A stretch of DNA of 64,000 nt from Natrialba asiatica DSM 12278 (GTDB taxonomy: Archaea > Halobacteriota > Halobacteria > Halobacteriales > Natrialbaceae), in assembly GCF_000337555.1 (NCBI RefSeq), contig NZ_AOIO01000040.1, positions 310,184 through 374,183 on the forward strand, given 5' to 3'. The position numbers and the translations under genes were made by a program. Under the pieces are notes generated by a model. It ran no database searches and was not told where the DNA came from. It saw nothing but the letters and a program-made list of their open reading frames with translations. This document shows positions 24,981-26,896 of this stretch, one piece after another (position 1 is the first letter of the stretch; every line of letters begins with the position of its first letter).

Positions 24981-26168
24981 ATGGTCGAACCCGCGACAGT
25001 CGCGACGTTTCTGGTAGCCGCCATCGCCAGCCTCTTTATGGCCTGGGCGATCGGTGCCGGCTCGAGCGGCTCGACACCGTTCGCTCCCGCCGTCGGTGCC
25101 AACGCGATTTCGGTGATGCGAGCCGGTTTCTTCGTCGGGCTCCTCGGATTCATCGGCGCCGTCGTCCAGGGTGCAAACGTCTCCGAAGCGGTCGGCAGGG
25201 AACTCATCGGCGGCGTCATCCTCTCGCCGAGCGCCGCAACGATCGCCCTGATTATCGCCGCCGGGCTGGTCGCAATCGGCGTCTTCGCCGGCTACCCCAT
25301 CGCCACCGCTTTTACAGTCACCGGTGCCGTCGTCGGCGTCGGCCTGGCGATGGGCGGCGATCCCGCGTGGCCGAAATACGTCGAAATAGCCACGCTCTGG
25401 ATTCTCACGCCCTTCGTCGGGGGCGGTCTCGCCTACGGTATCGCCCGGCTCCTCCGGAGCGAACCCATCGCAGAACCCTCCCTGATCGTCGGCCTCGCCG
25501 CCTTCGTCGGCCTCCTCATCGCCAACATCGAGTTCGCCTTTCTCGACCCCGACAGCACCGGCGGCGCGTCTATCGCACAGGCTGTAAGCGACTGGGCGCC
25601 CGGTCCTGAACTCGTCGGTATGATCGTCGTGACAGGACTCGTGGGGCTGCTCTGGGGTGGAATCGTCGCCGCCGATCTGCGCAGCAGCGTCGAACGCGGT
25701 GAACGACATTTCCTGCTCGTTCTCGGTGCGCTCGTCGCGTTCTCGGCTGGCGGCAGTCAGGTCGGGCTGGCAATCGGGCCGCTGATTCCGCTCTCCGAAG
25801 ACGTCGGTCTCCCGCTTCTTGCGTTGCTTCTGGGCGGCGGTATCGGCCTCCTGATCGGCTCGTGGACCGGTGCGCCGCGAATGATCAAGGCCATCTCACA
25901 GGATTACTCTTCGCTCGGTCCCCGGCGGTCGATCGCCGCGCTCATTCCGTCGTTCATGATCGCGCAGACGGCGGTATTGTTCGGCATCCCCGTCTCCTTC
26001 AACGAAATCATCGTGAGTGCGATCATCGGTAGCGGCTACGCCGCAAGTGGCAGCGGCGTCAGCGCCCGGAAAATGGGGTACACCGTCCTCGCGTGGGTGC
26101 TCTCGCTCGCCGGTTCGATTATCGTCTCCTTCGTCGGCTACACGGCCCTCTCGGCAGTACTTCTGTGA
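24981..26168 (+). CDS. inorganic phosphate transporter, PiT family (copy 3, divergent)
   Basis: The 395-residue protein has about ten helices and the PiT half-repeat signatures GAGSSGSTPFAPAVGANA near the N-terminus and SAGGSQVGLAIGPLIPLSEDVG in the middle. It is more distant from copies 1 and 2 than they are from each other, and its loops are shorter. It probably symports phosphate or a related anion. It stands alone on the plus strand, about 16 kb from the main cluster, following the DUF5828-like gene by 79 bp. The disrupted minus-strand operon begins just downstream. Confidence 0.85.
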   Translation: MVEPATVATFLVAAIASLFMAWAIGAGSSGSTPFAPAVGANAISVMRAGFFVGLLGFIGAVVQGANVSEAVGRELIGGVILSPSAATIALIIAAGLVAIGVFAGYPIATAFTVTGAVVGVGLAMGGDPAWPKYVEIATLWILTPFVGGGLAYGIARLLRSEPIAEPSLIVGLAAFVGLLIANIEFAFLDPDSTGGASIAQAVSDWAPGPELVGMIVVTGLVGLLWGGIVAADLRSSVERGERHFLLVLGALVAFSAGGSQVGLAIGPLIPLSEDVGLPLLALLLGGGIGLLIGSWTGAPRMIKAISQDYSSLGPRRSIAALIPSFMIAQTAVLFGIPVSFNEIIVSAIIGSGYAASGSGVSARKMGYTVLAWVLSLAGSIIVSFVGYTALSAVLL

Positions 26169-26349
26169 CTATTCGTCCGTCTCGAATCCGTCTTTTCTTT
26201 GTTCCAACGGACCGCTCTGGAACGCTTGCGAGTTGGTTGTGATCCGTCAGTCCCTTCCCTCGCGCGAGTGACGGCGTTCCGGTCAGGCGTCTGCCGTTAC
26301 TCCCTTCTCGATCAAGCGTCTGTCGTCACCATCCACTTTAGCATCTGTG

Positions 26350-26357
26350 GAAAGAGT
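26350..26357. repeat. target-site duplication, left copy
   Basis: The 8-bp sequence GAAAGAGT directly abuts the left end of the element, and the identical octamer abuts the right end at 26745-26752. An exact 8-bp duplication is the footprint of a transposition event. Confidence 0.9.
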
Positions 26358-26375
26358 GGCTCTGTTGAAATCCTC
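26358..26375 (+). repeat. left terminal inverted repeat of the element
   Basis: GGCTCTGTTGAAATCCTC; an exact match to the reverse complement of 26727-26744. Similarity stops immediately inside. Confidence 0.9.
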
Positions 26376-26459
26376 TTCTTCAGATGTATTTTAGCGCGAA
26401 ACACACGCACACTACAGATGCGAGTACAACGACTGTTCAAGTTCTCGCGTGGTAGTTCA

Positions 26460-26630
26460 CTATGTTAAGCCCCACACCACACCGAGAAAGATACCGAGAA
26501 CCATACCAAACGGAATACCTATCGCGATATCACCCAGTGCGAGTCCAAGAGTGGCTCCTAGTAGCGGCCCGAACGCAATCCCCAGAGCCATTTTATTCGA
26601 ATCCATTTGGTCATCTTCTTCGTCAAACAC
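26460..26630 (-). CDS. small Gly-rich membrane protein carried inside the element
   Basis: From the GTG at 26630 (or the ATG at 26606) the frame encodes 56 (or 48) residues: an acidic, Lys-containing start (EEDDQMDSNK) followed by two Gly-patterned hydrophobic helices, around ALGIAFGPLLGATLGLALG and IGIPFGMVLGIFLGVVWG. G-x3-G spacing recurs, as in glycine-zipper helices. Similar short proteins with repeated ALGxxxG stretches are widespread among prokaryotes. The ORF lies entirely between the terminal repeats, so it would travel with the element. It is not a transposase fragment. Function unknown. Confidence 0.55.
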   Translation of the reverse strand: MFDEEDDQMDSNKMALGIAFGPLLGATLGLALGDIAIGIPFGMVLGIFLGVVWGLT

Positions 26631-26726
26631 GTGCTGTCTTTGGACTTCCGGTGAGATAAACCCAGAGATCTAATGGAACGTGAGTTCCCCGTACTTACTG
26701 ATCCCCATCAAAATTTATTAGCCGCT

Positions 26727-26744
26727 GAGGATTTCAACAGAGCC
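26727..26744 (-). repeat. right terminal inverted repeat of the element
   Basis: GAGGATTTCAACAGAGCC on the plus strand, perfect partner of 26358-26375. Read on the minus strand it supplies the stop codon (CTGTTGA) that truncates the interrupted gene. Confidence 0.9.
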
Positions 26745-26752
26745 GAAAGAGT
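26745..26752. repeat. target-site duplication, right copy
   Basis: Second copy of GAAAGAGT, directly abutting the right end of the element. Confidence 0.9.
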
Positions 26753-26896
26753 ACGAGTTCAAACGCAGCGAACCCCAACACGAGCAACCGGGTCATCCCC
26801 TCCAGGTACGAAATTGCGACGAACGCAAGAATCGCGGCGCTGCTAAGTCCCATTCCATAGCGATACACGGGATTTTCGAGTATGTTACTCATACGA

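What the first reader, a model, noticed from the sequence alone, without database searches (positions are those of the whole stretch)
26312..26892. A transposable element has split a small membrane-protein gene, and excising it in silico restores the frame
The element (26358-26744) has perfect 18-bp inverted ends and an exact 8-bp duplication GAAAGAGT. Removing it plus one duplication rejoins the minus-strand gene as ...ELVLF-PQMLKWMVTTDA-stop. The element's own terminal repeat creates the premature TGA. This is a recent, reconstructible gene-disruption event, visible without any database.
Basis: seen in the sequence. Interest (0 to 1): 0.6.

Follow-up and report, generated by a model that had tools for sequence, protein, structure and literature searches.

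The report
Transposase-less gene cassette in haloarchaeon
A 387-bp mobile DNA cassette that carries its own small membrane-protein gene, but no transposase, has jumped into and truncated another small gene in a salt-loving archaeon; two relatives still have the uninterrupted site, and the cassette belongs to a widespread haloarchaeal set of gene-carrying elements that share the ends of an IS5-family transposon.

Summary
Window 26358-26744 has 18/18-bp inverted ends and an exact 8-bp target duplication. Two congeners have the matching empty site, and one (G047) encodes the rejoined 61-aa protein at 97% identity.

Between conserved IS-type ends it carries a 56-codon Gly-rich membrane-protein gene on the minus strand. 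This gene is 94% identical (DNA) to a chromosomal gene of the two congeners; the window's own genome has a ~60% identical version at that locus.

The ends match the ISHla2/ISHxa2 group of haloarchaeal IS5-family elements. I delimited 38 elements with exact 8-bp duplications: 13 with transposase, 1 with a transposase remnant, 24 without. The transposase module is constant, while the cargo differs between nearly all copies (HalOD1, rhomboid, Gfo/Idh, histidine kinase, O-methyltransferase, many small membrane proteins).

This looks like an archaeal IS5-family counterpart of the Bacillus IS231-MIC231 modular elements (mobile insertion cassettes). Mobilisation in trans is inferred, not shown, and no intact cognate transposase was found in the draft own genome. 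New variant of a known kind.

The parts
26358..26744 (.). Transposase-less element (gene cassette), 387 bp, G+C 48% in a 64% G+C window
   Evidence: 18/18 inverted ends, 8/8 target duplication, two empty sites in congeners
26358..26375 (+). left terminal inverted repeat GGCTCTGTTGAAATCCTC
26727..26744 (-). right terminal inverted repeat GGCTCTGTTGAAATCCTC
26350..26357 (.). target-site duplication copy 1, GAAAGAGT
   Evidence: single copy in L042, one substitution in L044
26745..26752 (.). target-site duplication copy 2, GAAAGAGT
26358..26421 (+). conserved left IS/MITE end (element bases 1-64)
   Evidence: 82-97% identical ends in many haloarchaeal genomes, e.g. L019 97% over 64 bp
26687..26744 (-). 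conserved right MITE end (element bases 330-387)
   Evidence: shared with L019 and L032, which lack this cargo
26419..26689 (.). captured segment (element bases 62-332), homologous to a chromosomal locus in congeners
   Evidence: 94% identical to L013/L014 over 271 bp, with no inverted ends there
26460..26630 (-). passenger gene: 56-codon Gly-rich small membrane protein (GTG start; the frame is open further upstream, so the start is uncertain)
   Evidence: 93% aa identity with G042/G047 genes; 7 synonymous vs 3 nonsynonymous differences from L013; homologues L015-L018
26753..26892 (-). 5' part of the interrupted host gene (small membrane protein; present truncated ORF 26734-26892, 52 aa)
   Evidence: 97% identity of the rejoined product with G047
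26312..26349 (-). 3' remnant of the interrupted host gene, including its stop codon
   Evidence: rejoins in frame on excision; colinear with L042 and L044

Best explanation
The element is a transposase-less, gene-carrying cassette (a mobile insertion cassette) built from haloarchaeal IS5-family (ISHla2/ISHxa2-type) ends. A DDE transposase from a full-length relative, acting in trans, most likely recognised the shared ends, excised the cassette and inserted it with an 8-bp staggered cut into the 3' part of a 61-codon membrane-protein gene, truncating it to 52 aa. Between the ends it carries a 56-codon Gly-rich membrane-protein gene taken from a chromosomal locus of a close relative. Shown: the ends, the target duplication, the empty sites, the foreign allele of the cargo, and the existence of transposase-bearing relatives with the same ends and the same duplication length. 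Inferred: action in trans, the identity of the transposase, and how the gene was captured (a 4-bp TGCG shared at the left junction suggests microhomology joining between MITE ends).
For: Ends and duplication. Empty sites in two congeners. Conserved left end 1-64 and right end 330-387 found separately from the cargo in other genomes, cargo segment 62-332 found separately from the ends. L013/L014 native locus is syntenic with own contig C9 (L002): flanks 76-100% identical and mostly above 87%, but the gene itself only 57-64%, so the cassette carries the congener-type allele. Survey: 38 elements with the same ends and exact 8-bp duplications, 13 with a full transposase, 24 without. The transposase belongs to IS5 family NF033579 and is annotated ISHla2/ISHxa2 in plasmid records, always starting 52 bp from an identical end. 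Transposase modules 88-91% identical with no similarity in the remainder, e.g. L133/L202 and L099/L201/L209.
Against: No intact cognate transposase was found in the own genome; every copy is frameshifted or has stops, although the assembly is in 49 contigs and multicopy elements may be missing. Only one copy of this cassette exists, so its own mobility rests on a single event. The right end of this cassette differs beyond the inverted repeat from that of transposase-bearing copies. Function of the cargo protein is unknown (no Pfam or NCBIfam match above cut-off).
Confidence: 0.85

Rival explanations
1. An ordinary decayed MITE or internal-deletion derivative whose 56-codon ORF is incidental and not a passenger gene.
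For: Short, no transposase, one copy; non-coding MITEs with the same ends exist (L032, L082, L124). The published haloarchaeal picture is that MITEs are mostly non-coding (PMC3119063).
Against: The ORF is conserved in six other loci at up to 93% aa identity, over exactly the inner segment, at chromosomal sites without inverted ends. Many sister elements carry clear protein families.
Confidence: 0.08
2. An IS6-family (IS26-like) derivative: the GGCTCTGTTG-type ends and the 8-bp duplication also resemble IS6 elements, and the own genome has IS240-type transposases.
For: 8-bp duplication; IS6-type ends from memory look similar; three DDE_Tnp_IS240 matches in the own genome.
Against: All 13 delimited transposase-bearing elements with these ends encode an IS5-family DDE_Tnp_1 transposase, none an IS6 one.
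Confidence: 0.03
3. The 'empty sites' are secondary precise excisions, not the ancestral state.
For: Precise excision is possible in principle.
Against: Two congeners lack it with no scar, and the surrounding DNA diverges at a normal ~10%; insertion in one lineage is simpler.
Confidence: 0.03

Closest known systems
IS231-MIC231 modular elements and mobile insertion cassettes (Bacillus cereus group, IS4 family)
   Same: IS-type inverted ends bracket a non-transposase gene; transposase-bearing relatives carry extra genes between the left end and the transposase; target duplication. Definitions as given in PMC3913671 and PMC2266710.
   Different: IS5 family instead of IS4, archaeal hosts, unrelated ends; mobilisation in trans shown for MIC231, not here.
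ISHla2 / ISHxa2 (haloarchaeal IS5-family elements)
   Same: Same terminal repeat, 8-bp duplication, conserved left end
   Different: The window element has no transposase; its right subterminal region is of a MITE type; cargo different
ISH2 (protein-coding MITE of Halobacterium/Haloquadratum, mobilised by ISH8)
   Same: Transposase-less haloarchaeal element with a non-transposase ORF (PMC3119063, PMC10264941)
   Different: Partner IS and duplication length differ (10-11 bp in the tables of PMC10264941); ISH2 is one repeated element with one ORF type, whereas here the cargo differs from copy to copy
Transporter ISs (tIS; IS1595 family and others)
   Same: IS with passenger genes unrelated to transposition (PMC3129680)
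   Different: tIS keep their transposase; most elements here do not

Membership tests
Mobile insertion cassette (MIC) | two IS-type inverted repeats | tested here: met
   18/18 bp
Mobile insertion cassette (MIC) | no transposase gene inside | tested here: met
   longest ORFs 74, 65 and 56 aa, none transposase-like
Mobile insertion cassette (MIC) | carries a non-transposase gene | tested here: met
   56-codon gene conserved at native loci
Mobile insertion cassette (MIC) | target duplication showing transposition | tested here: met
   8/8 bp plus empty sites
Mobile insertion cassette (MIC) | mobilised in trans by a related IS transposase | not testable with these tools
   Shared ends and duplication length only; needs an in vivo assay
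IS5 family, ISHla2-type | terminal repeat and 8-bp duplication as in transposase-bearing members | tested here: met
   GGCTCTGTTGAAATCC in 13 transposase-bearing elements with exact 8-bp duplications
IS5 family, ISHla2-type | encodes its own IS5-type DDE transposase | tested here: not met
   absent in the window element; it is a non-autonomous relative, not an IS
Non-coding MITE | no protein-coding gene | tested here: not met
   passenger gene present
ISH2-type MITE | 10-11 bp duplication, ISH8-related ends | tested here: not met
   8-bp duplication and ISHla2-type ends here; ISH2 values from PMC10264941

The most novel reading that the evidence does not exclude
Haloarchaea share a class-wide gene-cassette traffic. 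ISHla2-type transposases, acting in trans, repeatedly capture single host genes between their ends and distribute them between species and families as small transposase-less cassettes, with a strong representation of small membrane proteins. It would be a functional analogue of MIC231 or integron cassettes in Archaea, and the window element is one recent landing.
Probability: 0.4. Interest if true: 0.65.

Novelty: new variant of a known kind. Interest (0 to 1): 0.5.

Why it matters
[quoted passage not shown] A 2011 Haloquadratum study found only ISH2-type MITEs to code for a protein (PMC3119063). The elements delimited here show the modular build in an IS5-family group across many haloarchaeal genera, with cargo changing while the transposase module stays constant. 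If trans-mobilisation holds, it is a simple, testable route for moving single small genes between archaeal species, and many 'hypothetical' small membrane proteins in these genomes would be cassette cargo. The window gives one fully dated event: occupied site, empty site and source locus of the cargo in three congeners.

Tried and rejected
IS6 family as partner: considered because of the 8-bp duplication and IS240 matches; rejected because all transposase-bearing elements with these ends are IS5-type. Other copies of the whole cassette: none in the own genome or in 125 family genomes. Phage and viral collections: no match to the element or its left end. Pfam and NCBIfam gave no family for host gene or passenger. 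Inverted pairs L098, L109 and L160 matched the end only with 4 mismatches (GGCTGTGTTGAATCG type for L109 and L160) and were excluded as other elements. L073 (own contig C7, 2149 bp, 1-mismatch duplication) was excluded from counts as uncertain. L019 carries a HalOD1 gene next to a left end, but its right inverted repeat is lost, so it was not counted. Papers on passenger genes in haloarchaeal IS: no specific report among the papers found; the library holds only open-licence papers and ISfinder itself could not be consulted.

Full report
WHAT IS THERE. The element at 26358-26744 is 387 bp long with perfect 18-bp inverted ends and an exact 8-bp duplication GAAAGAGT. Its G+C content is 48% against 64% for the window. 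Excision of the element and one duplication restores a 61-codon minus-strand gene ending PQMLKWMVTTDA. As it stands, the frame ends in the element's terminal repeat after 52 codons.

EMPTY SITES. A search with the rejoined protein found a full-length, stop-free 97% identical homologue in G047 and a 90% identical partial match in G042, both of the window's genus. The flanks joined in silico align at 90% over about 2 kb with both loci (L042, L044), and the junction GGAAAGAGTACGAG is uninterrupted in L042; L044 has one substitution in the target (GGGAAGAGT). G042 additionally has a 1-bp deletion in the gene, so the gene is also damaged there by another route. The insertion is therefore derived and specific to the window lineage among those sampled. 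G045 is probably Natrialba magadii: its end match has the same coordinates as that in record NC_013924.1. That makes Natrialba the likely genus of the window.

EFFECT ON THE HOST GENE. Alignment of homologues shows two hydrophobic segments followed by a conserved P-x-x-L-K/E. The insertion removes that motif and the C-terminus but leaves both hydrophobic segments. Loss of function is likely but not shown. The gene lies beside a PHO4-family phosphate transporter gene (24981-26168); whether they are functionally linked was not examined.

THE ELEMENT IS A CHIMERA. A search of 125 genomes of the family split it in three. Bases 1-64 and about 330-387 recur widely as ends of other elements. Bases 62-332 recur at 82-94% identity in L013-L018 without inverted ends. 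That middle segment holds a 56-codon Gly-rich membrane-protein gene (26460-26630, minus strand). Its differences from the L013 copy are 7 synonymous and 3 nonsynonymous, a small sample. At the left junction the element and the native locus share TGCG.

SOURCE OF THE CARGO. L013 and L014 (G047, G042) are chromosomal loci syntenic with contig C9 of the window's own genome (L002). Flanks are mostly 87-100% identical, but the gene itself only 57-64%. The own genome thus keeps a divergent version at the native site and a congener-type version in the cassette; only G000, G042 and G047 of the seven genus genomes have the gene. This fits capture in another lineage and delivery on the element. Capture followed by replacement of the native gene is an alternative.

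THE WIDER FAMILY. In 293 genomes of the order the exact 22-mer occurred in 38 genomes of 20 genera, with no hit for the reversed control pattern. Pairing inverted ends within these loci gave 42 pairs of 206 with flanking 8-mers at 7/8 or better, 29 exact, against 0.08 expected from shifted registers. With the annotated plasmid loci added, 38 elements have exact duplications: 13 with a full-length transposase match, 1 with a remnant, 24 with none (276-2994 bp, median 450).

THE TRANSPOSASE. It is a 273-aa IS5-family DDE protein (DDE_Tnp_1; NF033579 transpos_IS5_2), annotated ISHla2 or ISHxa2 in Halorubrum lacusprofundi and Halopiger xanaduensis plasmids. In all twelve plasmid loci fetched the end lies exactly 52 bp before the start codon. 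In the window's own genome every copy found is broken by frameshifts or stops. The Haloquadratum study reports the same puzzle for another MITE, mobile with only disrupted transposases left (PMC3119063).

CARGO IS MODULAR. Transposase modules of about 890 bp are 88-91% identical between elements whose remaining DNA is unrelated (L133/L202; L099/L201/L209). Cargo with Pfam matches above cut-off includes HalOD1, Hypoth_Ymh/DUF2321, SBF transporter, ABC transporter pair, UDG superfamily, RDD, DUF998, rhomboid, DUF5518, Gfo/Idh/MocA, PBP-like and Cupin_2 in elements without a full transposase, and PAS-histidine kinase and O-methyltransferase in transposase-bearing ones. Some of these elements (cupin, SBF, RDD in L139, PBP-like, UDG) have one mismatch in the duplication. 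Many others encode short hydrophobic proteins without a Pfam match. An RDD gene occurs in opposite orientation in a transposase-less element (L139) and in ISHxa2-type L201 (82% over 482 bp). A 2592-bp element with a histidine-kinase gene sits at 98% identity in Haloplanus sp. GDY1 and Haloarcula pelagica, two families, with different duplications: direct evidence that cargo-bearing copies move between lineages.

HOW IT WORKS. Best reading: transposase supplied by a full-length relative binds the shared ends and inserts the cassette with an 8-bp stagger. The anatomy and outcome are shown; the action in trans, the transposase used and the capture mechanism are inferred. The most likely capture route is joining of a gene-bearing fragment between two MITE ends (L032 has the same two ends with no gene), because the window element shares its right subterminal region with L019 and L032 rather than with transposase-bearing copies.

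WHAT IS KNOWN. Mobile insertion cassettes and their trans-mobilisation are known from Bacillus (MIC231; PMC3913671); IS with passenger genes are known (tIS; PMC3129680); ISH2 is a coding haloarchaeal MITE (PMC10264941). No paper found describes an IS5-family cassette group of this diversity in haloarchaea, but the paper library is partial and ISfinder was not available, so individual members may be catalogued there.

VERDICT. On its own it is an ordinary insertion. Its interest lies in the cassette nature and in the family it belongs to.

Noticed in passing
L203:1949-4540 and L211:1949-4540: The same 2592-bp ISHla2-type element carrying a PAS/histidine-kinase gene, 98% identical, sits at different target sites in Haloplanus sp. 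GDY1 and Haloarcula pelagica plasmids.
   Followed up: partly
L139:6887-7552 and L201:1949-4438: The same RDD-family gene is cargo in a transposase-less element and, in opposite orientation, in an ISHxa2-type element.
   Followed up: partly
L109:1174-2113 and L160:1040-1977: Another element type of about 940 bp with ends GGCTGTGTTGAATCG and exact 8-bp duplications, apparently a different family.
   Followed up: no
L044 (G042): The host gene is independently damaged by a 1-bp deletion in a second congener, suggesting it is dispensable.
   Followed up: partly
L002 versus L013: At the native locus of the cargo gene the window's genome has a version only 57-64% identical between flanks mostly 87-100% identical, as if the gene alone had been replaced.
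   Followed up: partly
window 26312-26440: A 42-aa ORF starts inside the element and runs into the 3' remnant of the host gene: a likely false gene call.
   Followed up: no
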